Of a stretch of DNA of 42,329 bases, positions 2,536-37,859 are shown in pieces. Made by a program: the position numbers and the translations under genes. The DNA is from Bacteroidales bacterium. Its GTDB lineage: Bacteria > Bacteroidota > Bacteroidia > Bacteroidales > Bacteroidaceae. The stretch spans positions 1 to 42,329 of the forward strand of contig JAUNNV010000001.1 in NCBI GenBank assembly GCA_030531335.1. The letters are read 5' to 3'. The notes below the pieces were generated by a model. The model was not told the DNA's origin, did not search any database, and saw only the letters and a program-made list of their open reading frames with translations. Position 1 is the first letter of the stretch. Each line of letters begins with the position of its first letter.

Positions 2536-4458
2536 ATGAAAAGATTATTCTTGTGTTTGTATATTCTCATCGTCACAGCCTTGCAGTTGCAGGCCGTCGA
2601 GCAGCGCAACTTGTTGCAGAAGCAGTGTGCCGACGTGAATCAGTTGAAATCGTTGCTGGTGATGGACCAGAAGTGGGTGCCTTATCCTGCCTACGCCGAC
2701 CGTGCAGGGTGGGACAAGCTCCTGGGCGGTCTGAAAGACGAATACATCCGAAATGGCGAACGCTACCTGGACTATGAGTGGAAGGTTGTCAAGGCTACCG
2801 ACTATGTGGAGTACGAGCGTTCTGGCAACCGCACCATCATGGAAGGCCCCTACGGCTCCAACAACGCCGCCATTGCTGCCTTGCTGATGGCAGAGCTGGC
2901 CGAAGGGATGGGGCGTTTTGTGGAGCAGATTGCCAATGGCGTGTTCCACACTTGCGAGATGACCTCTTGGTCGCTTTCGGCCCATCTGGCCTCGCTCTCT
3001 CCCTCGCACCGTTCGTTGGGCGAGAAGGGCGACAACACGTTGGAGCTTACCCAAGGCGAGGTGTCGCAGCTGTTCTCCTGGATTTATTATTTCCTACATG
3101 CCGAAATCGACAAGGTGCAGCCCGAGATTACCAAACGCTTGCGCAGCGAGTTGCAATACCGTGAGCTGGATGCCTACATGGATCGTGAAGACCTTTGGTG
3201 GATGGGCTTGGGCGAATACAAGGGCACCCAGCTCAACAACTGGAATCCGTGGTGCAACAACAACGCCATCCTTTCGTTCATGCTGCTCGAGAACGACCCC
3301 GACAAGCTGGCCGAAGGGGTCTGGAAGTCGATGGTCAGTGTCGATCAGTACCTGAACTACGTACAGGGCGACGGCGGCATTGAGGAGGGACCCTCCTATT
3401 GGTGGCATGCGCCAGGCAAGCTCTACGACTATCTCCACGCCTTATACATGATTACCGATGGCAAAATCAATATCTTCAACGAACCCTTGGTGAAGTGGAT
3501 GGGCGAGTACATTGTCCGCTCGTATGTAGGCGATGGCTGGGTGGTCAACTTTGCCGATGCTTCCGCCAAGGGGGGGCGCGACGCGCTCGACCTGATCTAC
3601 CGCTACGGGGTGGCGGTGGGCAGCGACCTGATGCAGAGCTATGCCGTCGATCTGAACCAAGGCAAGCCCATGCCCATGACTTTCGGCACCGACGTGTCGC
3701 GCTCTTTGGAACGCCTCCGCTTCGCTCCGCAGATGTTGTCGCAGCAGCTCTCCTACAAGGCACCGGCCTACACCTGGTACCCCGAGACGCAGTTCTGCTA
3801 TCTCACCAACAAAAACGACTGGTTCGTGGCTTCCAAGGGTGGCTACAACGGCGAGAGCCACAACCACAACGATGTGGGTTCGTTCAATCTCTACATCGAC
3901 AAACTGCCTGTGTTCATCGATGCCGGCGTGGGCACCTACACCCGCCAGACCTTCAGCAGCGAACGCTACGACATCTGGACCATGCAGAGCCGTTACCACA
4001 ACCTGCCCGTCATCAATGGTGTGGCACAGTCGGACGGTCATGGCTTCCGTGCCCGCGATGCCAAGGCGGTGCCGGGCTCCTTCTCGGTCGATATAGCTGG
4101 CGCCTACAAGCCGGAGGCCAAGGTCGAGAAGTGGGTGCGTGCCTACAAGCTGGGCGCGTCGTCGCTCAAAATCACCGACACGTTCAAGCTGTCCGAGGCG
4201 GTGGCTCCTGCCGAAATCAATTTCATGACCTGGGGCAAGGTCGATGTGGCCAAGGCTGGTGTCGTGTCGCTCGACGTGCAGGGGCAGAAGGTCCAGCTGA
4301 AGTACGATGCCGGCGTGTTCGAGGCTCATGTCGAAACCATACCTCTTCCCGACACCCGCCTGTCGAGGGTGTGGGGTCCCGAAATCTATCGCATCACGCT
4401 GAAGGCCCGCAAGGCGGCGACAAACGGCAGCTACACTTACACCGTAACCAAACTCTGA
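2536..4458 (+). CDS. Heparinase II/III-like secreted polysaccharide lyase, paralogue 1
   Basis: A 640-aa secreted protein of the heparinase II/III superfamily, which cleaves uronate-containing polysaccharides by beta-elimination; the substrate cannot be read from sequence. Residues 1-20 are a Sec signal peptide (MKRLFLCLYILIVTALQLQA). An alpha-helical barrel follows, with conserved blocks KWVPYPAYADRAGWDK (~46-61), NNWNPWCNNN (~234-243) and EEGPSYW (~283-289). The C-terminal beta-sandwich begins near 430 and carries SHNHNDVGS (~441-449) and DAGVGTYTRQTF. The Asn, Tyr and His residues typical of this fold's active site are therefore present. First gene of a unit with a GH29 fucosidase and two paralogues. 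No SusC/SusD pair accompanies it. Confidence 0.85.
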   Translation: MKRLFLCLYILIVTALQLQAVEQRNLLQKQCADVNQLKSLLVMDQKWVPYPAYADRAGWDKLLGGLKDEYIRNGERYLDYEWKVVKATDYVEYERSGNRTIMEGPYGSNNAAIAALLMAELAEGMGRFVEQIANGVFHTCEMTSWSLSAHLASLSPSHRSLGEKGDNTLELTQGEVSQLFSWIYYFLHAEIDKVQPEITKRLRSELQYRELDAYMDREDLWWMGLGEYKGTQLNNWNPWCNNNAILSFMLLENDPDKLAEGVWKSMVSVDQYLNYVQGDGGIEEGPSYWWHAPGKLYDYLHALYMITDGKINIFNEPLVKWMGEYIVRSYVGDGWVVNFADASAKGGRDALDLIYRYGVAVGSDLMQSYAVDLNQGKPMPMTFGTDVSRSLERLRFAPQMLSQQLSYKAPAYTWYPETQFCYLTNKNDWFVASKGGYNGESHNHNDVGSFNLYIDKLPVFIDAGVGTYTRQTFSSERYDIWTMQSRYHNLPVINGVAQSDGHGFRARDAKAVPGSFSVDIAGAYKPEAKVEKWVRAYKLGASSLKITDTFKLSEAVAPAEINFMTWGKVDVAKAGVVSLDVQGQKVQLKYDAGVFEAHVETIPLPDTRLSRVWGPEIYRITLKARKAATNGSYTYTVTKL

Positions 4459-4459
4459 G

Positions 4460-5809
4460 ATGGTCATGAGGAAAGTCTTGTGCGGCCTGTTCCTGTCCTG
4501 CAGCCTCTGTATGGCAGCGTTTGCCCGGCAAACCGACAACAAGCCTGCCGTCGTGGAGCGTTTCATGGACATGGGGTTCGGCATGTTCATCCATTGGAGC
4601 GTCGATTCGCAGTTGGGGGCTGTCATCAGCCATTCGCTTTCGGGTGCGTCCGAGGACTATTGCCAACGCTTCTTCACGGAGCTGCCCTTGACGTTCAATC
4701 CCAAGAAGTTCGACCCCGATGCATGGGCGGTGTTGGCCCGGCTGGCGGGCATGAGGTACGTGGTGTTCACCACCAAGCATCATTCGGGCTTCTGCATGTT
4801 CGACACGCAAACCACGCCGTTCAACATCATGAACACTCCGTTCCATCGCGACATCACGCGCGAACTGGTCGATGCTTTCCGCCGACAAGGCATAGCCATC
4901 GGCTTCTACTTCTCGCCCGAGGATTTCTGGTTCTTCCATCGGCAGGGTGTGCCCATCGGTCGCTTGCAGCACGAGCAGCACTATCCGGTCAGCAACCCTG
5001 CGTTGATGGAGCACGACAAGCGGCAACTGAAGGAACTGCTCACCAACTACGGACAAGTCGATGTGCTTTTCTTCGACGGACCGGCCGAGGAGCTCAAGGA
5101 GTATGCGTGGTCGTTGCAGCCCGACCTGATGGTCACGCGCGGACAGATTTCCACCCCCGAGCAAACCACCCCGGGTGTTCCCATGCCCGGACCGTGGGAG
5201 GCTTGCTACACCATGGGCACCGACTGGCAGTACAAGCCCACCAACGACCCGCACAAGTCGGGCAAGGACATCATCAACATGCTTATCGAGATGCGCGCCA
5301 AGGGGGGCAACTTCCTGCTCAACGTGGGGCCGAAACCCGATGGCGAGCTGCAGATTGAGCAGGAGGCGCGGCTTCGCGAAGTGGCCTTGTGGAACTTTGC
5401 CAACACCGAGGCCATCCACGACATCCGTCCGTGGCACATCGTCCGCGAGGGCGACGTGTGGTTCACCCGCTCCAAGGACGGCACGGCCGTCTATGCCTTC
5501 GTCACCCGCACCGCGTGGAAGTATGGCGAGCGCAAGGAACTGGTGTTGCGCACGCTTCGTGGCAATGCCGGCACCAAGGTGTCGGTGCTGGGCTACGACA
5601 GCCGCCTGGTGGAATACCGGCAGGACTACGATGCCACGCTGCGTTGGGATGCCTCGCCACTGGGACTGGTCGTCAGTGCCGTCAATGGACAGCGTTTCTA
5701 CACCAACAACCTCTGGGACAACCCGGTGGTGCTGAAAATAGAGCATGTGGACTACCAGCCCATCAACGACAAGGCAAGCAAGCAATCGCAAATCGATGGT
5801 GCCAAATAA
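4460..5809 (+). CDS. Secreted alpha-L-fucosidase, GH29 family
   Basis: A retaining fucosidase expected to remove terminal alpha-L-fucose from glycans in the periplasm or outside the cell. The first ~20 residues form a signal peptide (core VLCGLFLSCSLCMAAFA). The TIM barrel shows family motifs: GMFIHWSV near residue 36, YVVFTTKHHSGF near 100, GFYFSPEDFW near 150 and DVLFFDGP, whose Asp (about 206) is the expected nucleophile. A smaller C-terminal beta domain follows GGNFLLNVGPKPDG. The start is one base after the stop of the preceding lyase gene, so the two are almost certainly co-transcribed; an ATG two codons on is equally possible. At 449 aa it is a compact member. Fucose next to lyases suggests a fucosylated, uronate-containing glycan (inference). 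Confidence 0.9.
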   Translation: MVMRKVLCGLFLSCSLCMAAFARQTDNKPAVVERFMDMGFGMFIHWSVDSQLGAVISHSLSGASEDYCQRFFTELPLTFNPKKFDPDAWAVLARLAGMRYVVFTTKHHSGFCMFDTQTTPFNIMNTPFHRDITRELVDAFRRQGIAIGFYFSPEDFWFFHRQGVPIGRLQHEQHYPVSNPALMEHDKRQLKELLTNYGQVDVLFFDGPAEELKEYAWSLQPDLMVTRGQISTPEQTTPGVPMPGPWEACYTMGTDWQYKPTNDPHKSGKDIINMLIEMRAKGGNFLLNVGPKPDGELQIEQEARLREVALWNFANTEAIHDIRPWHIVREGDVWFTRSKDGTAVYAFVTRTAWKYGERKELVLRTLRGNAGTKVSVLGYDSRLVEYRQDYDATLRWDASPLGLVVSAVNGQRFYTNNLWDNPVVLKIEHVDYQPINDKASKQSQIDGAK

Positions 5810-5841
5810 TCACCTATAACACCTACTAACAACAACCTACA

Positions 5842-7752
5842 ATGAAAAAACTGTTTCTTTTTGCCCTTTTGTTGGGCATGGCACTGCAAGGCAGTGCCTA
5901 CACCGAGCGTAACATTCTTCAGGCCAAGGCCACCGAGGCCCAGCTGAAGGATATGTTGATTACCAACCAGAAGTGGGTGTCTTATCCTGCCTACGCCGAC
6001 CGTGCCGGATGGGACAAGCTCACCGGCGACTGGAAGGCCCGTTATGTGGAGGCTGGCGAAAAGTATCTCGACTTCGCGTGGATTACCATCAAGGCTACCG
6101 ACTACCTGGAGTTCGAACGCACGGGCAACCGTATCATCATGGAGAATCCTTATTTCGAGAACCGTTCGGCTTTCTCGGCTTTGCTCATGGCCGAGTTGGC
6201 CGAGGGTAAGGGTCGCTTCATCGACCAGATCATCAATGGTGTGTTCTACTATTGCGAAATGACCACTTGGTCGCTCTCAGCCCACACCAGTGCCCAGAAG
6301 TCGCGCCGTTCGTTGCCTGCCTTGGGCGACGACGTGTTCGACCTCTTCGCCGGCGACATGGGCTCGCTCCTGTCCTGGACTTACTACTACCTGCACGACT
6401 CGTTCGACAAGGTCGATCCCGAAATCTCGCGTCGCCTGCGCTACGAACTGCAGCATCGCATCATCGATGCCTTCATGAAGGGTGGCTTTGGCTGGATGGC
6501 CGAGAACTATGTAGAGGGCAAGACCACCATCAACAACTGGAACCCCTGGTGCAACTTCAATGCGCTGGCTTGCTTCGCCCTGCTCGAGAACGACCGCGAC
6601 GCGCTGGCCAAGGAGGTCTATAAGTCGATGGTGTCCATCGACAAGTTCATCAACTACAGCAATGTCGATGGCGCTTGCGAGGAGGGACCGAGCTATTGGA
6701 ATGCGGCCGGCGGCAAGATGTACGACTACATCGAGCTGCTCTACAAGCTCACCGGCGGCAAGCTCAATGTCTATGACGACGTGCAGGTGAAGAACATGGG
6801 CGAGTACATCGCTCATTCGTATGCAGGCAATGGCTGGGTGGTCAACTTCGCCGATGCTCCTGCCCGTGGCGGTGGCGATCCTTCGCACATCTTCCGCTAC
6901 GGCAAGGCCGTCAACAGCCCCATCATGATGAGCCATGCCAACTACCTCAAGCAGACCAAGGGCGAGCCTCGGGCTGCCGGCAACGACATCACCCGCAACC
7001 TTGAGGCACTCTCCGTCCGCAGCGAATTCGCCCAGTACACCGTCGAGCGTACCACAGCTCCTTACAGCTGGTACCCACAGACGCAGTTCTGCTACATCCG
7101 CGACAAGGCCAACGACCTTATGCTGGCTGCCAAGGGCGGACACAATGCCGAGAGCCACAACCACAACGACGTGGGCACGTTCATCCTCTACAAGCATTCC
7201 GAACCAGTGTTCATCGATGCCGGTGTGGGCACTTACACCCGTCAGACCTTCGGGCCGGAGCGTTACACCATCTGGACCATGCAGACCGACTATCACAACA
7301 TCCCGCTCATCAACGGCGTGTCGCAGAAGGCCGGCCGTGAGTTCCGCGCCGCCAACGCACAGATGAAGGGTGCCAAGACCTTCTCCGTCGATATAGCCGG
7401 CGCTTATCCCGCCGAGGCCGACGTGAAGTCGTGGGTGCGCTCCTACAACCTGGGCAAGGGTGTGTTGCGCATCACCGACAAGTTCTCGCTCGGTAGTGCC
7501 AAGGCTGCCAACCAAATCGACTTCCTCTCCTGGGGAAAGGTGGAAGCTGCCGCTCCCGGCGTAGTGGTGGCCGAGGTGAACGGGCAGACCATGTCGCTCA
7601 TGTACGACAAGAACGCATTCGACTGCAAGGTGGAGAAAGTGGGAATCAACGACCCCAAGCTGGCAAACTCGTGGGGCAATGCGGTCTATCGCATCGCGCT
7701 GACGGCTAAGAAGCTCACCACCAGCGGCACCTACACCTTCTCCATCAAGTAA
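5842..7752 (+). CDS. Heparinase II/III-like secreted polysaccharide lyase, paralogue 2
   Basis: A 636-aa paralogue of the product of 2536-4458, with matching domain order: signal peptide MKKLFLFALLLGMALQGSAY, helical barrel with KWVSYPAYADRAGWDK, NNWNPWCNFNA and EEGPSYWN, then a beta-sandwich with SHNHNDVGT (~438-446) and DAGVGTYTRQTF. All motifs linked to catalysis are kept, so it is probably active. Differences are spread through the barrel loops (for example GGFGWMAENYVEGKTT in place of EDLWWMGLGEYKGTQ), which suggests altered substrate or linkage preference. It follows the fucosidase by 32 nt with no promoter in the gap. Codon use is strongly GC-ending, as in its neighbours. Confidence 0.85.
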   Translation: MKKLFLFALLLGMALQGSAYTERNILQAKATEAQLKDMLITNQKWVSYPAYADRAGWDKLTGDWKARYVEAGEKYLDFAWITIKATDYLEFERTGNRIIMENPYFENRSAFSALLMAELAEGKGRFIDQIINGVFYYCEMTTWSLSAHTSAQKSRRSLPALGDDVFDLFAGDMGSLLSWTYYYLHDSFDKVDPEISRRLRYELQHRIIDAFMKGGFGWMAENYVEGKTTINNWNPWCNFNALACFALLENDRDALAKEVYKSMVSIDKFINYSNVDGACEEGPSYWNAAGGKMYDYIELLYKLTGGKLNVYDDVQVKNMGEYIAHSYAGNGWVVNFADAPARGGGDPSHIFRYGKAVNSPIMMSHANYLKQTKGEPRAAGNDITRNLEALSVRSEFAQYTVERTTAPYSWYPQTQFCYIRDKANDLMLAAKGGHNAESHNHNDVGTFILYKHSEPVFIDAGVGTYTRQTFGPERYTIWTMQTDYHNIPLINGVSQKAGREFRAANAQMKGAKTFSVDIAGAYPAEADVKSWVRSYNLGKGVLRITDKFSLGSAKAANQIDFLSWGKVEAAAPGVVVAEVNGQTMSLMYDKNAFDCKVEKVGINDPKLANSWGNAVYRIALTAKKLTTSGTYTFSIK

Positions 7753-7767
7753 TCGCCTGGATTTTCC

Positions 7768-7785
7768 AGCACCTCTGTGCTTTTT
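7768..7785 (+). terminator. Small hairpin with T run between paralogues 2 and 3
   Basis: agcac (7768-7772), loop ctct, gtgct (7777-7781), then a T run and a second one in agatttttag. It is too short to be a strong terminator but could lower expression of the third lyase relative to the second. The GTG at 7777 inside this hairpin is in frame with the next gene but is an unlikely start. Confidence 0.35.
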
Positions 7786-7809
7786 AGATTTTTAGATTTC
7801 CCGACTCAC

Positions 7810-9747
7810 ATGAAACGATTTCTAATCTCTCTTCTTTTCCTCGTGGGCATTGGCCTTTCCGCCAACGCCTACGAGGAACGCAACATGCTGTTGGGCAGCA
7901 TCACCAAGGAGCAGCTTCGCGACGTGGTGGTGCAGCACCGGCAGTGGATGCCTTATCCTGCCTACGCCGACCGCGCCGGATGGGACAAGTTTCTCGGCAA
8001 TCAGAAGGACTTGTACATCCGGAAAGGCGAGAAGTACCTTGGCTATGGTTGGCAGTATGTCAAGACCAGCTACTACCTGGCCTACGAGACCACTGGCGAC
8101 CGCATGGTCATGCAGAATCCTTACGAGGCCAACATCGATGCCGTGGGATTCCTGCTCCGGGCCGAGTTGGCAGAGGGCAAGGGTCGTTTCATTCCCGACC
8201 TCATCGACGGGGTTGTCTGCTTCTGCGAAATGACCTCGTGGGCTCTCTCCGCCCATCTGGTGTCCCACCAGTCGAGCGGCCGTTCCATCCCCGACATCGA
8301 CGAGCCTGTGGTGGCGCTCCGCCAGTCGAAGGTGGCCGAGATGCTGGCTTGGGTGTGGTACTACTTCCACGATGAGTTCGACAAGACGAGTCCCGTCATT
8401 GCCCGCCGTCTGCGCCATGAGTTGCAGGTGCGTATGCTCGACCCCTTCATGGCCCGCGACGACTTTTGGTGGATGGGGCTGGGGGACAAGCGGCAGGTGC
8501 TCAACAACTGGACCGCCTGCTGCTCTTTCAATGCCATGATGTGCTTCATGCTGCTCGAGGACGATGCCGACAAGCTCACCGAGGGGGTGTGGAAGTCGAT
8601 GCGTTGCGTCGATCAGCTCCTCAACTATGCACCGGCCGACGGTGCCTGCGACGAGGGTCCCAGCTACTGGAAGGGCAACGCTGGCATGATCATCAACTAC
8701 CTCAGTGCCTTGCGGCGCATCACGGCAGGCAAGGTGGATTTGTTGTGCGACCCCTTTGTGCGGCGCATGGCGGAGTTCTACGTCCACTCGTGTGTGGGCG
8801 ACGAGTGGTTGGTGAGCTTTGCCGATGCCCATGCCCGCAATGCCAACACCACCTATCCGCTTCTCTATCGCTTCGGTGCCGAGGTGCGGAGCCCGCTGCT
8901 CAAGGCCTTCGCTGCACGGGGTGTGCGCCTGCAAGGCAAGGTGGATTTCGAAAGCGACATGTCGCCCTGCTTCTATTCGCTCTACCACGAGTTCGAGAAC
9001 CTGTGGTATGCTGACGAAATGCAGCGCTACGACGAGCCCATCGATCGTCCGTCGTGCGTGTGGTATCCTGAGGCGCAGTTCTGCTATCTCGACAATCGGC
9101 ATGGCTTTTTCCTTGCCGCCAAGGGCGGCCACAACGGCGAGAGCCACAACCACAACGACGTGGGGTCGGGAGTGTTCTTTATCGATGAGACACCCATCCT
9201 GGCCGATGCCGGCGTGGGGGTCTATACCCGCCAGACATTTGGAAAGGAGCGTTACACCATCTGGAACATGCAAAGCCAATATCACAACCTGCCCATCATC
9301 AATGGAGTGATGCAGCACGAAGGCAGTGCGTTCCATGCCACCGATGTGAAGGCCGACACACGCCGACTTTCCTTCTCGGCCGACATTGCCGCAGCATATC
9401 CCACCGAGGCCAAGGTCGATTCGTGGGTACGCTCCTACCGACTAAGCAAGTCCGGGTTGGTCATCACCGACAAGTTCTCCCTCGCCGAGGCCAAGATGCC
9501 CAACACCGTCAACTTCCTCACCTGGGGCAGGCCATCGGTACAGCATGGGGGGATTGTCGCCATTCGCACGGAGAAACTCACGGCCCTTCTCTCCTACGAT
9601 GCACAACAGTTCTCGGTGGCCGTAGAGGAGATACCCCTCAATGACAAGATTCTGGCACACACTTGGGGACCGATGCTCTATCGCGTCGTGCTCACCGCCA
9701 GACAACAACCCACCGAGGGCACTTACCGCTTTGTGATTTCCAAATGA
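7810..9747 (+). CDS. Heparinase II/III-like secreted polysaccharide lyase, paralogue 3
   Basis: Third tandem paralogue, 645 aa from the ATG at 7810, chosen because it begins a proper signal peptide (MKRFLISLLFLVGIGLSANA). The same blocks recur: QWMPYPAYADRAGWDK, then NNWTACCSFNA where paralogues 1 and 2 have NNWNPWC, DEGPSYWKG, SHNHNDVGS (His at ~446 and ~448) and DAGVGVYTRQTF. Loss of the NPW triplet in the barrel motif and a distinct region SDMSPCFYSLYHEF mark it as the most divergent of the three. Active-site Asn, Tyr and His candidates are kept. It is the last gene of the cluster; the next gene has its own promoter. Confidence 0.85.
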   Translation: MKRFLISLLFLVGIGLSANAYEERNMLLGSITKEQLRDVVVQHRQWMPYPAYADRAGWDKFLGNQKDLYIRKGEKYLGYGWQYVKTSYYLAYETTGDRMVMQNPYEANIDAVGFLLRAELAEGKGRFIPDLIDGVVCFCEMTSWALSAHLVSHQSSGRSIPDIDEPVVALRQSKVAEMLAWVWYYFHDEFDKTSPVIARRLRHELQVRMLDPFMARDDFWWMGLGDKRQVLNNWTACCSFNAMMCFMLLEDDADKLTEGVWKSMRCVDQLLNYAPADGACDEGPSYWKGNAGMIINYLSALRRITAGKVDLLCDPFVRRMAEFYVHSCVGDEWLVSFADAHARNANTTYPLLYRFGAEVRSPLLKAFAARGVRLQGKVDFESDMSPCFYSLYHEFENLWYADEMQRYDEPIDRPSCVWYPEAQFCYLDNRHGFFLAAKGGHNGESHNHNDVGSGVFFIDETPILADAGVGVYTRQTFGKERYTIWNMQSQYHNLPIINGVMQHEGSAFHATDVKADTRRLSFSADIAAAYPTEAKVDSWVRSYRLSKSGLVITDKFSLAEAKMPNTVNFLTWGRPSVQHGGIVAIRTEKLTALLSYDAQQFSVAVEEIPLNDKILAHTWGPMLYRVVLTARQQPTEGTYRFVISK

Positions 9748-29527: not shown

Positions 29528-30646
29528 ATGCAAACAGACAGTCAATCCCCAGAATTTGCCCGGCTAAGCTCACCCGAAAGGAAAATAGACCCACAAAGAA
29601 TAAAACTGGCGCGTAGGCTGTGCCACTACTCTATGGATGAACTCTGCCGACGAATGGGGGAGGATGCCGTCAGTAAGATGGCAATCTCGAAGATAGAGCG
29701 TGGTATCTTCACCCCATCTCCCAACGTCCTAAAAGCTATGGCCAAAGCCTGCGGAGTGCCGCTCGGCTACTTTTACCGACAAGACATCCACATCGGCCAA
29801 ATGGACTTCCGTTTCTCAGAAAGCATCTCGAAGCGCAAGTCCGAGGAGATACGCGCACAGGTGACGGCGGCCATCATAGACTACGCCATCACCAACTCGT
29901 GCGTGCCGTCCACCAACGAGTTTTTTGCTCCGATGGCACGGACTACCCTACGTACCTACGCCGATGTCGAGGTGGCAGCAAGCCGGCTTCGCCGCAAATG
30001 GTGCATAGGCCTACAGCCGATATTCTCCGTGTATGAATTGTTGCAAAACCATGGCATCCACATTATAGAGCTCGAAATAGATGACTTGAATGTTGACGGC
30101 ATAGCAACGACCATCAATTCCTCGCTGCCCGTGATTGTGGTGAACACCCTGAAGCACACCACCACCGAACGCAAGCGGTTCACGGCACTTCACGAACTCG
30201 CCCATCTGCTGTTTCGCCTGTGCCCGTTGTCGGCTGCCGAACATGAAGAATATGTTGGCGCATTACCTCCGTTGCCCTACAGGGTTTCGCTGAAACATGC
30301 CGACATCGAGCGCCTTTGTAACTTCTTTGCCAACGCCATGCTGTTGCCAAGCCAGGCCGTTGTACGCCGTATAGGTCAGTCGCGATTCGAGTTGGACATG
30401 AGGGAACTCGTCGGTGTCCGCGAGATGTATGGCATCAGCATAGCCGCTATCGTCCACCGCCTCCACGACATGCGCATCATCCCCGACACCCTTTACCACT
30501 ATTTTTTCGAGCACATCATCAGTCCCAACCTTATGGAGGTCGGCTGGGGCACTTTCCCCATCATGGAACATGCCGACATGCCGATGTTGTTGAAGATAAG
30601 GATAGAAAAAGAAAACTCCCCGTTAAAGGACGAGGAGCAGACCTAA
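29528..30646 (+). CDS. XRE-family regulator fused to ImmA/IrrE metallopeptidase-like domain
   Basis: A 372-aa protein in two parts. Residues ~20-75 form a helix-turn-helix domain (KLARRLCHYSMDELCRRMG ... MAISKIERGIFTPSPNVLKAM). Residues ~160-300 form an ImmA/IrrE-type zinc protease domain with HELAH at 222-226 and a likely third ligand in IERLCNFFANAMLLP (Glu ~261). Such proteins typically bind an operator and/or cleave a repressor in response to stress, phage or mobile elements. All expected metal ligands are present, so it is probably active. It lies directly upstream of cas9 in the same direction with no terminator on that strand between them. Whether it regulates the CRISPR system, is itself a defence or stress gene, or is only adjacent cannot be settled here. 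Confidence 0.8.
   Translation: MQTDSQSPEFARLSSPERKIDPQRIKLARRLCHYSMDELCRRMGEDAVSKMAISKIERGIFTPSPNVLKAMAKACGVPLGYFYRQDIHIGQMDFRFSESISKRKSEEIRAQVTAAIIDYAITNSCVPSTNEFFAPMARTTLRTYADVEVAASRLRRKWCIGLQPIFSVYELLQNHGIHIIELEIDDLNVDGIATTINSSLPVIVVNTLKHTTTERKRFTALHELAHLLFRLCPLSAAEHEEYVGALPPLPYRVSLKHADIERLCNFFANAMLLPSQAVVRRIGQSRFELDMRELVGVREMYGISIAAIVHRLHDMRIIPDTLYHYFFEHIISPNLMEVGWGTFPIMEHADMPMLLKIRIEKENSPLKDEEQT
30602..30637 (-). terminator. Intrinsic terminator of the tracrRNA
   Basis: On the - strand: ctcctcgt, a six-base loop, acggggag (30637-30616), then ttttctttttct. Eight pairs including one G-U, with a good U tract. It overlaps the 3' end of the ImmA-type coding sequence on the other strand. Confidence 0.85.
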
Positions 30647-30694
30647 ATGTTTTCACAACGGAATAATCCTTATTGTGAATAGCTACAAATTCGT
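30602..30694 (-). ncRNA. tracrRNA
   Basis: Read on the - strand. Positions 30694-30672 (acgaatttgtagctattcac then aat) are complementary to the first ~24 nt of the crRNA-sense repeat (GTTGTGAATAGCTTACAAAA...), with one bulge, one mismatch and a terminal G-U. It continues with aaggattattccgttgtg, a segment typical of Bacteroidetes tracrRNAs as I recall them, and ends in a terminator hairpin. A consensus promoter lies just upstream (30729-30699). Predicted length is about 93 nt; the exact 5' end is uncertain by several bases. It would pair with pre-crRNA for processing and load into Cas9. It is antisense to the last 45 nt of the ImmA-type gene and to the leader of cas9. Confidence 0.88.
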
Positions 30695-30698
30695 GATG

Positions 30699-30729
30699 CA
30701 AAAGTATGAATATAATCTCAACCAACAAA
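30699..30729 (-). promoter_or_regulatory. tracrRNA promoter
   Basis: On the - strand: TTTG (30729-30726), exactly 19 nt, TACTTTTG (30706-30699). This is a perfect Bacteroidetes vegetative promoter, with the same boxes and spacing as the rpsL promoter. Transcription should begin within a few bases of 30694. The -33 box is about 17 nt from the cas9 start codon on the opposite strand, so polymerase loading here could interfere with cas9 expression. Confidence 0.85.
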
Positions 30730-30745: not shown

Positions 30746-33700
30746 ATGAAAAGAATTTTAGGATTAGACCTTGGCACCACCAGTATCGGGTGGGCATTGG
30801 TCAATGAAGCGGAAAACAAGGAAGAATGTTCTTCCATTATTAAATTAGGTGTAAGGGTCGTTCCACTTACTGTTGATGAACAGGGCAACTACGAAAAAGG
30901 GAAAAGCATAACTACCAATGCCGACAGAAATCTAAAGCATGGAATGCGAATCAATCTCCAGCGTTACAAATTGCGTCGTGCAAAACTCGTTCAGTGCCTA
31001 AAACAGAATGGCATCATAACAGACGATTCCGTTTTGTGTGAATCAGGCAACTCAACTACTTTTCAGACGTATCAACTGAGGGCGAAGTGCGCGACAGAAA
31101 GAATCGAACTCAACGACTTTGCCCGCGTTCTTCTAATGATCAACAAGAAGCGTGGCTACAAAAGTTCCCGCAAAGCCATGTCTGCTGAGGATGGGCAGAT
31201 TATCGACAGCATGGATGTAGCCAAGATCCTTTACGAAAATAATCTCACTCCAGGCCAATATGTTTATCAATTGCTTCGTGATGGAAAGAAGTGCGTTCCT
31301 GACTTTTACCGTTCTGACTTGAATACAGAGCTTGAACGTATTTGGACATTCCAAAAGCGATTCCATGCGGGCATACTTACTGACGACTTCCGTGAGCAAA
31401 TATCGGGTAAGACGAAAGCCAACACATCAAAGATTTTCCATGGCAAATATGGCATTTTCACCGCAGAGAACAAAGGAAGTGAAAAGCGTATCCAATCATA
31501 CCGTTGGCGTGCAGATGCTTTGCAGAAAGAACTTTCACAAAGTGAACTCGCCTACGTTATAGCCGACTTGAATGGAGCCATAAACAATTCAAGCGGTTAT
31601 CTCGGAGCAATCAGCGACCGCAGCAAGGAACTTTTATTCAACAAACTTACCGTTGGTCAGTATCTGATGAAGCAAATAGAAGAAAATCCCAACAAAAGCC
31701 TAAAGAACAAGCCTTTCTACCGCCAAGATTACCTCGACGAGTTTGAGAAAATATGGCAGTGCCAGGCTTCTTTCCATCCAGAACTGACACCCGAATTAAA
31801 GAAAGAAATACGCGACATTGTCATCTTCTATCAGCGTCCGCTGAAAAGCAAGAAGGCAATGCTCGACACTTGTGAATTTGAGAACCGAACCGTATCGTAC
31901 GAAATAGAAGGACGGCAGAAGACAAAGACTGTCGGGCTGAAAGTCTGTCCGAAGGCATCTTTCCTGTTCCAAGAGTTCAAGGTTTGGCAGATACTCAACA
32001 ATATTGTGGTGAGAAATGAGGAGGGCAAACGGCCATTGTTGCAGAATGAGAAAGAATTGCTTTTCAAGGAGCTAACCCTACACGAGAAACTTTCAAAAGC
32101 CGACACCTTGCGACTTCTGTTCAAGCAGCTGAAAGGTTTTGACCTCAATTACATAGAGCTTGAAGGAAACCAATCCATGGCAGCTATCATGCGTGCTTGT
32201 GTCAACATCGTGGCCATGACCGGACATGAGGAACTTGACTACGACAAGACCCTTGCCACAGACATTTACCCTGTTGTCACGGATGTTTTCAAGTCATTGG
32301 GTTTCGCAACCGATTTTCTTTCCTTCGATGCGAGCCTCCAAGGCAAGGATTTTTACACCCAACCTGCATACCGCCTTTGGCATTTGCTCTATTCTTATGA
32401 AGGCGACAAATCCAAGTCGGGCACAGAAAGTCTTGTGCGGAAAATATCAGAACTGACGGGGATGGACAAGGAGTATGCCCAAGTATTGGCCAATGTCACT
32501 TTCGCCGATGACTATGGCAGTCTTAGCGCGAAGGCCATTCGCAACATACTTCCTTTCATGAAGCAAGGGCTGGAGTACAGCATGGCGTGTGAAGAAGCTG
32601 GTTATCGTCACTCGAAGGCATCGCTCACCAAAGAGGAATTGGACAACAAGGTTCTTGTTGACCATATCAGCCTTCTTCCTCGGAACAGTTTGCGTAATCC
32701 TGTCGTGGAGAAGATTATCAATCAAATGGTCAATGTTGTCAACTCCATAGCGGAAACATACGGCAGACCCGACGAAATACGTATTGAGCTTGCACGCGAA
32801 CTGAAGAAAAACGCGCAAGAACGCGAGCAACTTTCGAAAAGCATTAATGTGGCAAAGGAAAATGCAGACAAATACACAGAGATACTAAAGAAGGAATTCG
32901 GACTGCCATACGTCAGCCACAACGACATTGTCAGGTATCGTCTTTATCTCGAATTGGAGCCCAACGGATTCCACACGCTCTATACCAACACATTCATACC
33001 AAAGGAGAAACTGTTTAGCAAGGAGTTCGACATCGAGCACATCATCCCTCAGGCGAGGCTTTTTGACGATTCCTTTTCGAACAAGACCCTTGAAGCACGC
33101 GATGCCAACATTGAGAAAGGCAACTCCACGGCTTACGACTATGTGGTTGCAAAGTGTGGAGAATCTGGCGCAGAGGAGTATAAGAAAAAGATTGATACGA
33201 TGCTTAAGGATGGAGTGATTACGAAATCGAAGCACGACAAACTGCTCATGAAGGAAGCCGATATTCCGGAAGGCTTTATCGAGCGCGACCTCCGCAACTC
33301 GCAGTATATCGCACGCAAGTCGCGCGAGATTCTGGAACAAATGGTGCGCACCGTCGTACCTACCGTTGGTTCCATCACCGAACGCTTACGCGAGGACTGG
33401 CAGCTTGTCGATGTAATGCAGGAGTTGAATTGGAACAAGTACGATGCTCTCGGCATGACGGAGCGCCGTACCGACAAGGATGGGCGCGAAATCAGGAGCA
33501 TTAAGGACTGGACGAAGCGCAACGACCATCGTCATCATGCCATGGATGCCCTTACCATTGCATTCACCACACCAAGCATCGTGCAGTATCTCAACAACCT
33601 AAATGCCCGCAGCGACAAATCGAGTAGCATTTATGCCATAGAGAAAACTTGTCTGGAGCGCGACAAGAGAGGACACCTTCGCTTCATTCCTCCTATGCCT

Positions 33701-34873
33701 ATCAACACTTTCCGTGCTGAGGCAAAGCGTCATCTGGAATCGGTCATCGTGTCGGTCAAGTCAAAGACAAAGGTAGTGACGCGCAATGTCAACAAAACGA
33801 AATGCAAGAGTGGTTACAACAAGAAAGTGCAACTCACTCCGCGTGGTTCGCTCCATAATGAAACCATTTATGGCAGCATACATCAGTATGCCACCCACGA
33901 AGTCAAGGTTGGGGCTTCATTGACAGCCGATCTTATAGCCCTTGTGTCGAAGAAGGCCTATCGCGAAGCCCTTGCCCAACGCTTGGAGCAGTTTGGAGGC
34001 AATCCTAAGAAAGCGTTCACTGGCAAGAACTCGCTTGAGAAGAATCCTATCTATCTCAACGAATCCCACACCGAAACGGTTCCTCCTAAAGTCAAGCTTA
34101 CCGAGCAAGTCACACTATACCCCATTCGCAAGGCTATCGACAAAGACTTGAAGGTCGAAAAAGTTATCGACGTTGGTGTTCGCCGCATCCTTCAGCAACG
34201 TCTCGACAAATTTGGCGGTGATGCCAAAAAAGCCTTTGTCAACCTCGATGAGAATCCAATTTGGCTTAACAAGGAAGCTGGCATCAGCATAAGGCGGGTC
34301 ACCATCACAGGCATTGCCAATGCTACAGCGCTTCGCACCAAGAAAGATCGGTTTGGTCGCGAAATACTCGACGGGGAAGGAAAAACTCAGCCTGTTGATT
34401 TTGTCAATACAGGCAACAACCATCATCTTGCTGTGTTTATGGATGCCGATGGGAAATATCAAGAGCACATCGTGTCGTTCTACGAAGCTACGGCACGCGC
34501 TTCCATGAATCTGCCAATCATCGACCGTCGGTATCGCAGCGAAGACGGATGGAGGTTTCTCTTCTCGCTCAAACAGAATGAATATGTGGTTTTTCCAAAT
34601 CCAGAAACAGGCTTCGACCCACACGAAATCGATCTTCTCAATCCCGACAACTACAGCGTCATCAGCCCGAATCTGTTTCGTGTGCAGAGCTTCTCGACAA
34701 GAGATTATTGGTTCCGGCATCATCTTGAAACCATGTTGGTGGATGACATTACATTAAAGGATACAACATGGAAAAGAATACGTACCGTTGATGGATTGTC
34801 TGGTTTGGTAAAGGTGCGTGTCAACCATATCGGCCAAATTGTTTCGGTCAACGATAACGAGCGTCAATCATGA
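30746..34873 (+). CDS. cas9: CRISPR-associated endonuclease Cas9, type II-C
   Basis: 1375 aa, an RNA-guided nuclease that cuts both strands of target DNA. All catalytic parts are present: RuvC-I ILGLDLGTTSIGW (Asp8), Arg-rich bridge helix RINLQRYKLRRAKLVQ (~72-87), RuvC-II IRIELAREL (Glu681), HNH DIEHIIPQ (His765) with a following SNKTL, and RuvC-III HRHHAMDA (His931, Asp934). It should be active. The locus has cas9-cas1-cas2 only, with no csn2 or cas4, hence II-C. It is long for II-C but in the range of Bacteroidetes members. The C-terminal third holds an internal repeat (about 1073-1105 and 1146-1175: QRLEQFGG..KKAF / QRLDKFGG..KKAF). Its stop overlaps the cas1 start by 4 nt. The leader upstream carries the antisense tracrRNA. 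Confidence 0.96.
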   Translation: MKRILGLDLGTTSIGWALVNEAENKEECSSIIKLGVRVVPLTVDEQGNYEKGKSITTNADRNLKHGMRINLQRYKLRRAKLVQCLKQNGIITDDSVLCESGNSTTFQTYQLRAKCATERIELNDFARVLLMINKKRGYKSSRKAMSAEDGQIIDSMDVAKILYENNLTPGQYVYQLLRDGKKCVPDFYRSDLNTELERIWTFQKRFHAGILTDDFREQISGKTKANTSKIFHGKYGIFTAENKGSEKRIQSYRWRADALQKELSQSELAYVIADLNGAINNSSGYLGAISDRSKELLFNKLTVGQYLMKQIEENPNKSLKNKPFYRQDYLDEFEKIWQCQASFHPELTPELKKEIRDIVIFYQRPLKSKKAMLDTCEFENRTVSYEIEGRQKTKTVGLKVCPKASFLFQEFKVWQILNNIVVRNEEGKRPLLQNEKELLFKELTLHEKLSKADTLRLLFKQLKGFDLNYIELEGNQSMAAIMRACVNIVAMTGHEELDYDKTLATDIYPVVTDVFKSLGFATDFLSFDASLQGKDFYTQPAYRLWHLLYSYEGDKSKSGTESLVRKISELTGMDKEYAQVLANVTFADDYGSLSAKAIRNILPFMKQGLEYSMACEEAGYRHSKASLTKEELDNKVLVDHISLLPRNSLRNPVVEKIINQMVNVVNSIAETYGRPDEIRIELARELKKNAQEREQLSKSINVAKENADKYTEILKKEFGLPYVSHNDIVRYRLYLELEPNGFHTLYTNTFIPKEKLFSKEFDIEHIIPQARLFDDSFSNKTLEARDANIEKGNSTAYDYVVAKCGESGAEEYKKKIDTMLKDGVITKSKHDKLLMKEADIPEGFIERDLRNSQYIARKSREILEQMVRTVVPTVGSITERLREDWQLVDVMQELNWNKYDALGMTERRTDKDGREIRSIKDWTKRNDHRHHAMDALTIAFTTPSIVQYLNNLNARSDKSSSIYAIEKTCLERDKRGHLRFIPPMPINTFRAEAKRHLESVIVSVKSKTKVVTRNVNKTKCKSGYNKKVQLTPRGSLHNETIYGSIHQYATHEVKVGASLTADLIALVSKKAYREALAQRLEQFGGNPKKAFTGKNSLEKNPIYLNESHTETVPPKVKLTEQVTLYPIRKAIDKDLKVEKVIDVGVRRILQQRLDKFGGDAKKAFVNLDENPIWLNKEAGISIRRVTITGIANATALRTKKDRFGREILDGEGKTQPVDFVNTGNNHHLAVFMDADGKYQEHIVSFYEATARASMNLPIIDRRYRSEDGWRFLFSLKQNEYVVFPNPETGFDPHEIDLLNPDNYSVISPNLFRVQSFSTRDYWFRHHLETMLVDDITLKDTTWKRIRTVDGLSGLVKVRVNHIGQIVSVNDNERQS

Positions 34874-35808
34874 TAAAGAAAACCCTTTATTTCGGAAACT
34901 CTGCCTACCTGAGTATGCGTTTGCAACAACTGGTGGTGCAGATTCCCGAAATGCAAAACTCCGGTGACTTCTCTCCCGAGCAGAAGAAAGCTTACGAACG
35001 AACCACCCCCATCGAGGATATTGGTGTGGTGATTCTCGACAACCGTCGCATCACCATCACCAGTGGAGCCATGTCGGCTTTGTTGGCGAACAATGTGGCT
35101 GTCGTTACCTGCGACGAGCACAGCATGCCCAACGGACTGCTCATGCCGCTTGAGTGCAACACACTCCAACATGAGCGGTTCCTTTCCCAAACATCTGCAT
35201 CGCTGCCTCTGCGCAAGCAACTCTGGGCGCAAACCGTCAGGCAGAAGATACTCAATCAGGAGCATGTGCTTCGCACCAATGTGCCAAGTGTGGAAACCAA
35301 TTGCATGAAAGTCTGGGCCGCCAATGTGCGTAGTGGCGACCCTGACAACCTGGAAGCGCGTGCCGCTGCTTACTATTGGAGAAACCTGTTTCCCGACGTC
35401 CCAGATTTCACTCGCAACCGTGAGGGCGTGTCGCCAAACAATCTGCTCAACTATGGCTATGCCATACTTCGTGCGGTCGTTGCCCGCAGCCTTGTGGCAA
35501 GCGGACTTTTGCCCACTCTTGGCATACATCACCACAACCGCTACAACGCCTATTGTCTTGCCGACGACATCATGGAGCCTTATCGCCCATACGTTGATAT
35601 GCTGGTAATCAAGGTGCACCATGAAATGGGCGACACCGACTGCCTCTCGCGGGACTTGAAGGCACAGATGCTACAGATTCCCACTCTCGATGTTGTTGTG
35701 GATGGCAAGCGCAGTCCGCTCATGGTTGCGGCTGGCATTACTGCTGCCTCGCTTGCAAAATGTTATAAAGGAGAGGCTCGATTGGTCTCATATCCTGTAA
35801 TGTCATGA
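34870..35808 (+). CDS. cas1: CRISPR adaptation integrase Cas1
   Basis: 312 aa. With Cas2 it integrates new spacers at the array end. The N-terminal beta domain ([29 protein letters not shown]) and C-terminal helical domain are both present. Metal-binding candidates are Glu162 in [12 protein letters not shown], His in GIHHHNRYN (about 221) and the acidic [11 protein letters not shown]. Length and motifs are typical for type II. It overlaps cas9 and cas2 by 4 nt each (ATGA), implying coupled translation. Confidence 0.95.
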
Positions 35809-36149
35809 TAGCCGACCTCAGTCGTTATAGCGAGTATCGTGTCATGTGGATTCTGGTGTTCTTCGACTTGCCTACCGAAACAAAGAAAGACCGCAAAATA
35901 TATCAGGAATTCCGCAAGAACCTGATGCGCGACGGATTCACCATGTTTCAGTTTTCCATCTATCTGCGCCATTGCGCCAGCCGCGAAAACATGGCTGTCC
36001 ACATAAAGAGAGTGCATGAATGGCTTCCCGAATATGGCAAGGTCGGCATACTTACCATCACCGACAAACAATTTGGCGACATGGAAATATTCTATGGCAG
36101 AAAGGCGAAGATTGAAAAACACGTGCCAATACAGCTTGAACTTTTCTAA
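35805..36149 (+). CDS. cas2: CRISPR adaptation protein Cas2
   Basis: 114 aa, the dimeric scaffold of the Cas1-Cas2 integration complex. The ferredoxin-like core starts [21 protein letters not shown], with the conserved Asp after the first strand. It ends with a beta-strand tail (VPIQLELF) that docks on Cas1. Last gene of the cas unit; a long hairpin follows 19 nt later. Confidence 0.94.
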
Positions 36150-36168
36150 GTCCTCTTTGTTAGAAACA

Positions 36169-36198
36169 AGAAATCCCACTCCAAGGAGTGGGATTTCT
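36169..36198. terminator. Long hairpin between cas2 and the CRISPR array
   Basis: agaaatcccactcc (36169-36182) and ggagtgggatttct (36185-36198) are perfect complements; the tip of the stem must open to form a loop. The T run on the + strand is about 15 nt downstream, so it is not a textbook terminator. Its symmetry suits a shared stop for the convergent cas and array transcripts. Confidence 0.65.
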
Positions 36199-36273
36199 CT
36201 TGTTCACAAACAATTTTTTTTATTGTGAATCATCCTTATATCCAGTTAACAATCAATACTCTATACGTATTGT
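36199..36273. other. Cas-proximal flank of the array with repeat-like fragments
   Basis: ttcacaaacaat (36203-36214) and ttattgtgaat (36220-36230) resemble the two ends of the crRNA-sense repeat, but on the + strand, opposite in orientation to the array. Together they form a dyad (TTCACAA/TTGTGAA). The second fragment is also identical to 11 bases at the tracrRNA anti-repeat (30670-30680). It may be the remnant of an inverted repeat or of a second anti-repeat. The rest is A/T-rich. Confidence 0.4.
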
Positions 36274-37859
36274 ATTGTTTGTGATACATTCTCAATACGA
36301 TTTTGTAAGCTATTCACAACGATGGTGTCCTTTGGGTTCATGTAATACAATTGTTTGTGATACATTCTCAATACGATTTTGTAAGCTATTCACAACAGCC
36401 TTAAATCGAGCGTCGAAAAAGGCGAGCATTGTTTGTGATACATTCTCAATACGATTTTGTAAGCTATTCACAACATAGACGAAAACGGAGAAACCGATGA
36501 ACGAATTGTTTGTGATACATTCTCAATACGATTTTGTAAGCTATTCACAACTACCCTGCGAATATCCACTTTCAGGAACCAATTGTTTGTGATACATTCT
36601 CAATACGATTTTGTAAGCTATTCACAACGCCTTTAGCGGTTATCAAACGGCAGGTACTATTGTTTGTGATACATTCTCAATACGATTTTGTAAGCTATTC
36701 ACAACCTGGAACGTACTATTTCCACAATTCTACAAATTGTTTGTGATACATTCTCAATACGATTTTGTAAGCTATTCACAACTGCAGTTGCAGGACATGT
36801 ATAATCGCAGTTAATTGTTTGTGATACATTCTCAATACGATTTTGTAAGCTATTCACAACGCCTGCCTCTGTCTTGCTCCAGCTCCAGAGATTGTTTGTG
36901 ATACATTCTCAATACGATTTTGTAAGCTATTCACAACAATACCGTAATCGGTCGTTCGATTGCTGAAATTGTTTGTGATACATTCTCAATACGATTTTGT
37001 AAGCTATTCACAACTATCTTGTTATTTCGACAATAGTACCTGAATTGTTTGTGATACATTCTCAATACGATTTTGTAAGCTATTCACAACTAATTCCGCG
37101 GCCTGTTCTGCATTGATAGCATTGTTTGTGATACATTCTCAATACGATTTTGTAAGCTATTCACAACTTTACTTGACTAAATATATGGCAGTGGATAATT
37201 GTTTGTGATACATTCTCAATACGATTTTGTAAGCTATTCACAACATGAATGTTCCTCTTTCTTCGTCTGGTGTATTGTTTGTGATACATTCTCAATACGA
37301 TTTTGTAAGCTATTCACAACAAAAGGTAATTGATGACCTTGTTAGTCGTGATTGTTTGTGATACATTCTCAATACGATTTTGTAAGCTATTCACAACTCG
37401 CAACGACTATTAAAAATGCCAGAAAAAATTGTTTGTGATACATTCTCAATACGATTTTGTAAGCTATTCACAACCGGCGTGTACCTCGTTCTCACAACTG
37501 TCGTATTGTTTGTGATACATTCTCAATACGATTTTGTAAGCTATTCACAACAGTGCCATAATTAATTATTCTCTTGATTATATTGTTTGTGATACATTCT
37601 CAATACGATTTTGTAAGCTATTCACAACTCCGTTCGATTTTTGAATTTGAGCGAGTGAATTGTTTGTGATACATTCTCAATACGATTTTGTAAGCTATTC
37701 ACAACTGCAGCTGCAGGACATGTATAATCGCAATTATTGTTTGTGATACATTCTCAATACGATTTTGTAAGCTATTCACAACTCGCCGTAAATTTATTGA
37801 TTATTGTCACGAATTGTTTGTGATACATTCTCAATACGATTTTGTAAGCTATTCACAAC
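36274..37859 (-). CRISPR. Type II-C CRISPR array: 21 repeats, 20 spacers
   Basis: Twenty-one copies of a 47-bp repeat, read as identical. In crRNA sense (- strand) the repeat begins GTTGTGAATAGCTTACAAAA and ends TATCACAAACAAT. First copy 36274-36320, last 37813-37859; none is degenerate. Spacers are 29-31 nt, mostly 30. Orientation follows from tracrRNA complementarity to the repeat end starting GTTGTGA, and from a promoter at the right end. Spacers at 36783-36813 and 37706-37735 are near-identical (28 of the first 30 bases). The repeat has no TAnnTTTG box, so crRNAs probably come from one long precursor here, processed with tracrRNA and a host RNase III. On this reading the right end is leader-proximal, holding the newest spacers. 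Confidence 0.97.

What the first reader, a model, noticed from the sequence alone, without database searches (positions are those of the whole stretch)
36783..37735. Two spacers are diverged copies of one target
Spacers at 36783-36813 and 37706-37735 share tgcag, then tgcaggacatgtataatcgca, differing by T/C at position 6 and G/A at position 28. In one frame they read QLQDMYNR followed by S or N, and the T/C change is a synonymous Leu codon change (TTG/CTG). This pattern suggests two independent captures of the same site from related but diverged phages or plasmids, twelve spacers apart. The same edges suggest a shared PAM. Simple duplication of a spacer would more likely leave identical copies.
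Basis: partly seen in the sequence, partly recalled or inferred. Interest (0 to 1): 0.65.

Follow-up and report, generated by a model that had tools for sequence, protein, structure and literature searches.

The report
Twice-captured phage site in CRISPR array
A bacterium's CRISPR memory holds two slightly different copies of one target, most likely taken on two occasions from variants of the same invader, and a survey of relatives shows that such repeat captures recur in this kind of Cas9 system.

Summary
Spacers 7 (36783-36813) and 19 (37706-37735) of a 21-repeat Cas9 array match at 28 of 30 positions (differences at 6 and 28) and share the left edge. The locus is type II-C. By the F. columnare rule, and by relatives' degenerate distal repeats and PAM-side signal, the left edge is the PAM-proximal, leader-facing one. 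So spacer 19 is older, spacer 7 newer, and position 6 lies in the seed. No protospacer was found in any collection searched.

A survey of 138 related arrays (2529 spacers) found 25 diverged pairs in the same exact register, in 18 arrays, with codon-like 3-base periodicity (107 of 202 spacings; 0 of 5000 shuffles). Duplication plus mutation is thus not the general cause. Two pairs map to one phage site each; in both, the older spacer carries the phage allele.

Verdict: two captures of one PAM-defined site from variant invaders, likely; prompted by seed escape, plausible but exploratory. Legionella type I-C offers a precedent.

The parts
36783..36813 (-). Spacer 7 (31 nt), the newer copy; low-coordinate edge is PAM-proximal; position 6 = T, position 28 = G. 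Strand given is that of the crRNA.
   Evidence: orientation
37706..37735 (-). Spacer 19 (30 nt), the older copy; position 6 = C, position 28 = A
   Evidence: orientation
36274..37859 (-). CRISPR array, 21 identical 47-nt repeats, 20 spacers of 29-31 nt; crRNA read from the minus strand
36150..36273 (.). Probable leader (between cas2 and the first repeat)
   Evidence: inferred from the F. columnare rule and from relatives, where the repeats on the far side are the degenerate ones
35805..36149 (+). cas2
   Evidence: PF09827, TIGR01573
34870..35808 (+). cas1, type II
   Evidence: PF01867, TIGR03639
30746..34873 (+). cas9
   Evidence: TIGR01865, RuvC_III and HNH_4 domains
30606..30707 (-). Probable tracrRNA: anti-repeat 30673-30707, then a terminator-like hairpin 30616-30637 with a run of U
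   Evidence: both strands pair about equally well with the repeat (-32.3 and -31.2 kcal/mol), so the strand rests on the hairpin and on the family rule

Best explanation
Spacers 19 and 7 record two encounters with variants of one invader. The acquisition proteins (Cas1-Cas2, probably guided by Cas9) chose the same PAM-adjacent site both times and inserted the fragment at the leader (cas2) end. Spacer 19 came first; spacer 7 was inserted later, twelve places nearer the leader, from a variant that differed at position 6 from the PAM edge (seed) and at position 28 (PAM-distal, probably outside the part of the guide that Cas9 uses). The most likely reason that a second capture was kept is that the seed change weakened cutting by the older guide, so cells that took up the new allele regained protection. 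Shown here: the pair, its shared edge, and that such pairs recur in relatives and can map to one phage site. Inferred: that this pair had the same origin, and that escape, not mere exposure to a related invader, drove it.
For: Same PAM-side edge, lengths differing only at the far edge, unrelated neighbours. PAM side supported by PMC8092290, by distal-repeat degeneracy (far repeat worse in 57 of 138 arrays, first worse in 1) and by flank signal in L117 (0.67-1.13 bits at positions 1-5 against at most 0.39 on the other side). 25 of 31 diverged same-strand pairs in relatives share exactly that edge, and of 12 pairs with unequal lengths 8 share it against 2 sharing the far edge. Codon periodicity 107 of 202, 0 of 5000 shuffles. 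L117 spacers 8 and 12 both sit on one site of phage PDS1, the older matching fully, the newer differing at position 4; L122 spacers 3 and 5 likewise at one microvirus site, differing at position 9. Close pairs: 9 of 12 mismatches at positions 1-10, p 0.0038.
Against: No protospacer for either allele or, in phage and plasmid records, for any credible spacer of this array, so the target, its PAM and the polarity of the change are not seen. The seed enrichment was noticed in the first batch of arrays; in the second batch my count is 18 of 48 mismatches at positions 1-10, no excess over one third. L118 alone gives 5 of the 25 pairs. The close pair L100 25/26 is adjacent and differs at position 27, which fits duplication better. 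Position 28 of the window pair is not explained by escape.
Confidence: 0.75

Rival explanations
1. Two captures of the same PAM site from co-circulating related invaders, without escape: the site is conserved and often sampled, and the position-6 difference is neutral. This shares the first half of the best explanation and denies only the escape step.
For: The 17 pairs with 3 or more mismatches look like sampling of diverged homologous genes: strong codon periodicity and only weak seed excess (38 of 90, p 0.044). Second-batch pairs show no seed excess (my count).
Against: Close pairs concentrate mismatches at positions 1-10 (9 of 12, p 0.0038; without the window 8 of 10, p 0.0042); in 2 of 2 polarisable close pairs the newer spacer carries the base that the phage records lack.
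Confidence: 0.4
2. One spacer is a copy of the other made by recombination within the array and then mutated at two places.
For: Identical repeated spacers do occur in related arrays (14 pairs), and the review PMC8047081 (passages) describes duplication of units.
Against: Identical pairs lie 1 to 5 spacers apart, this pair 12. Neighbours are not duplicated and lengths differ. All 21 repeats are unchanged: if two changes fell at random on the two spacers and the 14 repeats from number 8 on, both would hit the spacers with chance 0.007 (repeats may be homogenised, so this is a rough guide).
Confidence: 0.08
3. The pair targets an IS1595-type transposase related to the fragment on contig C222 of the own genome, that is a transposable element and not a phage.
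For: The only match within 3 mismatches of the 21-base core in the own genome outside the array lies in that fragment (C222:219-239), and its frame reads LFQDMYHG against QLQDMYNR.
Against: 9 mismatches of 31 over the whole spacer; by arithmetic about 0.04 such core matches are expected by chance in this genome; no closer copy in 399 family genomes.
Confidence: 0.04

Closest known systems
Paired spacers against element LME-1 in Legionella pneumophila Toronto-2005, type I-C (Rao et al. 2016, PMC5071653; section 12 read whole, other passages seen)
   Same: Two spacers of one array aimed at one place; the older member carries a seed or PAM mismatch to the present element; escape and renewed capture proposed.
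   Different: Type I-C with primed acquisition and overlapping regions; here type II-C, exactly the same PAM-side edge, and the target of this pair is unknown.
Flavobacterium columnare type II-C (Hoikkala-type locus; PMC8092290, passages seen)
   Same: Repeat beginning GTTGT in crRNA orientation, transcription towards the leader, PAM end facing the leader.
   Different: 36-nt repeats and a TAAA-type PAM there; 47-nt repeats here and no PAM known for this Cas9.
Spacer duplication within arrays (review PMC8047081, passages seen)
   Same: Repeated spacers in one array.
   Different: Duplicates are expected to be identical and often in blocks; here the copies differ, are unequal in length and have unrelated neighbours.

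Membership tests
Type II-C CRISPR-Cas | cas9 with RuvC and HNH, type II cas1, cas2 | tested here: met
Type II-C CRISPR-Cas | no csn2 or cas4 in the operon | tested here: met
   cas9, cas1 and cas2 adjoin each other and the array; the gene before cas9 is an HTH/IrrE-type protein. An unlisted small or distant gene is not excluded.
Type II-C CRISPR-Cas | tracrRNA with anti-repeat | tested here: met
   anti-repeat at about 30673-30707; expression not tested
Escape-and-recapture spacer pair (as in Rao et al. 2016) | two spacers of one array aimed at one site | tested here: met
   28 of 30 identical with a shared edge; the site itself was not found
Escape-and-recapture spacer pair (as in Rao et al. 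2016) | difference in the seed or PAM | tested here: met
   position 6 from the PAM edge (orientation); PAM not known
Escape-and-recapture spacer pair (as in Rao et al. 2016) | newer spacer matches the present invader better than the older | tested here: inconclusive
   no protospacer found for this pair
Escape-and-recapture spacer pair (as in Rao et al. 2016) | the mismatch lowers interference by the older guide | not testable with these tools
   needs an interference assay
Array-internal spacer duplication | identical copies, usually close together or in blocks | tested here: not met
   two differences, unequal length, 12 apart, unrelated neighbours; the 14 identical pairs in the survey lie 1 to 5 apart

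The most novel reading that the evidence does not exclude
Type II-C arrays of this Bacteroidota family keep a readable record of invaders escaping Cas9 in nature: when an invader changes the seed of a targeted site, the host takes the same PAM site again, in exact register, so that older and newer spacers archive the ancestral and the escaped allele. The window pair is one entry. Type II systems would then renew immunity at the failing site itself and not only elsewhere on the invader.
Probability: 0.4. Interest if true: 0.65.

Novelty: new member of a known kind. Interest (0 to 1): 0.5.

Why it matters
If true, array order plus in-register variant pairs gives ordered pairs of target alleles from nature, which makes the question of how phages escape Cas9 outside the laboratory testable from genomes alone. 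It also bears on whether type II adaptation returns to a site that an old guide still partly recognises. In the survey 18 of 138 arrays hold at least one such pair and 7 hold a close one, so the material is not rare.

Tried and rejected
Protospacer searches that found nothing credible. IMG/VR: exact 21-base core, peptide QLQDMYNR, two other frames, the two 20-base halves; a further frame gave 9 contigs, all with 9 or more mismatches to either spacer. GTDB contigs: core, 0; peptide, 16 contigs, mostly Arthrobacter, best 6 mismatches of 30. Phage and plasmid records with the whole array: no credible match. Family genomes: own only, of 399. Genus g6: 0 of 249.

Nine Lak phages share 22 of 22 bases with spacer 13, but two of the three bases at the PAM-side edge differ, E is 2, and the same 22-mer gave 0 in IMG/VR: taken as chance.

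tracrRNA duplex energy as proof of strand: rejected, both orientations score alike.

The first wide run of my array detector (statistics) split arrays and counted one identical pair twice; one search is the corrected run and its counts are used. The unequal-length count rests on the pair list. Loci L144 and L145 (36-nt repeats, distant Cas1) were dropped, as were two arrays of unclear orientation (L210 and L227; 45 and 16 spacers). Phage matches were sought for eight relatives' arrays: L171, L188 and L053 gave none at E 0.1, L119 only Acinetobacter phages at E 0.3, L168 nothing that bears on its pair.

Full report
What is there. The window holds a type II-C CRISPR-Cas locus: cas9 30746-34873, cas1 34870-35808, cas2 35805-36149, then 21 identical 47-nt repeats with 20 spacers at 36274-37859. 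A probable tracrRNA lies before cas9 on the minus strand, with an anti-repeat at about 30673-30707 and a terminator-like hairpin. The own genome is a 2.3 Mb assembly in 222 contigs, 83% complete. Only one other genome of its genus is held, and it lacks the repeat.

The observation. Spacers 7 and 19 match at 28 of 30 positions and differ at 6 (T/C) and 28 (G/A); they are 31 and 30 nt long and share the left edge. Chance is excluded (about 7e-13 expected among 190 pairs).

Orientation. In F. columnare II-C the 3' end of the repeat is leader-proximal and the PAM end of the spacer faces the leader (passages of PMC8092290). Applied here, the leader is the cas2 side, the left edge is PAM-proximal, spacer 7 is the newer and spacer 19 the older. 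Relatives bear this out. The leader-distal repeat is more degenerate than the first in 57 of 138 arrays, the reverse in 1, and the rest tie. The flank on the predicted PAM side carries the signal: for the 17 spacers of L117 with phage matches of at most 4 mismatches, positions 1-5 hold 0.67-1.13 bits (mostly A), against at most 0.39 on the other side. L051 and L122 (8 spacers together) show no such clear contrast.

Target search. Neither allele was found in IMG/VR, GTDB contigs, phage or plasmid records, 399 family genomes (own array only) or 249 genomes of one large genus of the family. The own genome gives only a weak match in an IS1595-type transposase fragment, judged chance. No other spacer of this array had a credible match in the phage or plasmid records either, so the absence says little.

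Survey of relatives. With the window's Cas1 as query I fetched 178 stretches: 100 of the places listed, 41 and 37. Two were dropped (36-nt repeats). Of 177 loci scanned, window included, 133 gave 138 arrays with 2529 spacers and 33,645 within-array pairs; two arrays of unclear orientation were dropped. There are 14 identical same-strand pairs, 1 to 5 spacers apart; 31 diverged same-strand pairs; and 2 reverse-complement pairs. Of the 31, 25 align at offset 0, that is with the same PAM-side edge, in 18 arrays. Random between-array pairs reach the same score once in 395,834. Of 12 pairs with unequal spacer lengths 8 share the PAM edge, 2 the far edge and 2 neither.

What makes the pairs. Diverged pairs lie further apart in the array than identical ones (p 0.0017). 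In the 17 pairs with 3 or more mismatches, 107 of 202 mismatch spacings are multiples of three (null mean 62.7, maximum 97 in 5000 shuffles). That is the mark of codons and is not expected from mutation inside an array. Most of these pairs are therefore separate captures from diverged homologous genes at a conserved PAM site. A few (L188 22/23, L192 31/34) look like terminator hairpins and do not show it.

Direct cases. L117 spacers 8 and 12 both map to one site (1789, minus strand) of Parabacteroides phage PDS1. The older spacer 12 matches fully. The newer spacer 8 differs at position 4, where PDS1 and its relatives PD491P1 and C1_85S2P all carry the older allele. L122 spacers 3 and 5 both map to L152:4385 (microvirus VP1); the older carries the phage base at position 9, the newer does not. 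L051 spacers 17 and 41 both map to L152:4037 with 5 and 6 mismatches. So in 2 of 2 close pairs that can be polarised, the newer spacer carries an allele not seen in the phage records, in the PAM-proximal part.

Seed enrichment. In the 8 pairs with at most 2 mismatches (7 arrays), 9 of 12 mismatches are at positions 1-10 (p 0.0038; without the window 8 of 10, p 0.0042); in the other 17 pairs 38 of 90 (p 0.044). For spacer-to-phage mismatches, with at most 3 per match, 22 of 46 are at positions 1-10 (p 0.0375); reversed spacers gave 0 matches of at most 4 mismatches as control. Against this: the idea came from the first batch, and by my count the 10 pairs of the second batch show 18 of 48, no excess over one third; only one of the 8 close pairs (L168, both mismatches within 1-10) is from that batch. 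I treat seed enrichment as exploratory.

Reading of the window pair. It belongs to the close class: one seed difference, one PAM-distal difference that probably lies outside the used guide (recalled from other II-C Cas9s, no call), same PAM-side edge, different length at the far edge, 12 places apart. The best reading is two captures of one PAM-defined site from variants of one invader, the second perhaps prompted by seed escape. Duplication with mutation is unlikely: the 21 repeats are unchanged, the neighbours unrelated and the distance long.

Known or new. Rao et al. 2016 (PMC5071653, section 12) describe two pairs of spacers in a Legionella type I-C array whose older members carry seed or PAM mismatches to the element, and propose escape followed by primed acquisition. 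The kind of event is thus known. Searches for reports of nearly identical spacers or recapture at one protospacer listed no paper whose title or abstract describes same-register pairs in type II-C systems; the library holds open-licence papers only and I read few of those listed. The passages that I saw of a B. fragilis CRISPR survey (PMC9367070) do not mention the matter.

Noticed in passing
   Followed up: partly
window 37248-37269 (spacer 13): 22 of 22 bases shared with nine Prevotella Lak megaphages, but mismatched at the PAM-side edge and at E 2; probably chance.
   Followed up: partly
window 2536-9747: Three long ORFs in a row (2536-4458, 5842-7752, 7777-9747) have clearly similar translations, as of paralogous secreted enzymes; family not searched.
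   Followed up: no
window 29528-30646: An HTH plus IrrE-like peptidase gene (PF01381, PF06114; below the cut-off for antitoxin family NF052239) directly before cas9; the probable tracrRNA terminator overlaps its 3' end.
   Followed up: no
L051 spacer 35 and L122 spacer 14: Spacers of two different genomes overlap on opposite strands (20 of 23 bases) and map to the same microvirus stretch (L151 near 2742-2777).
   Followed up: no
L003:2-412 (own contig C222): A transposase fragment at the contig end, IS1595/ISXO2-like (PF12762 above cut-off; NF033547 below its cut-off), with a 3-mismatch match to the spacer core.
   Followed up: partly
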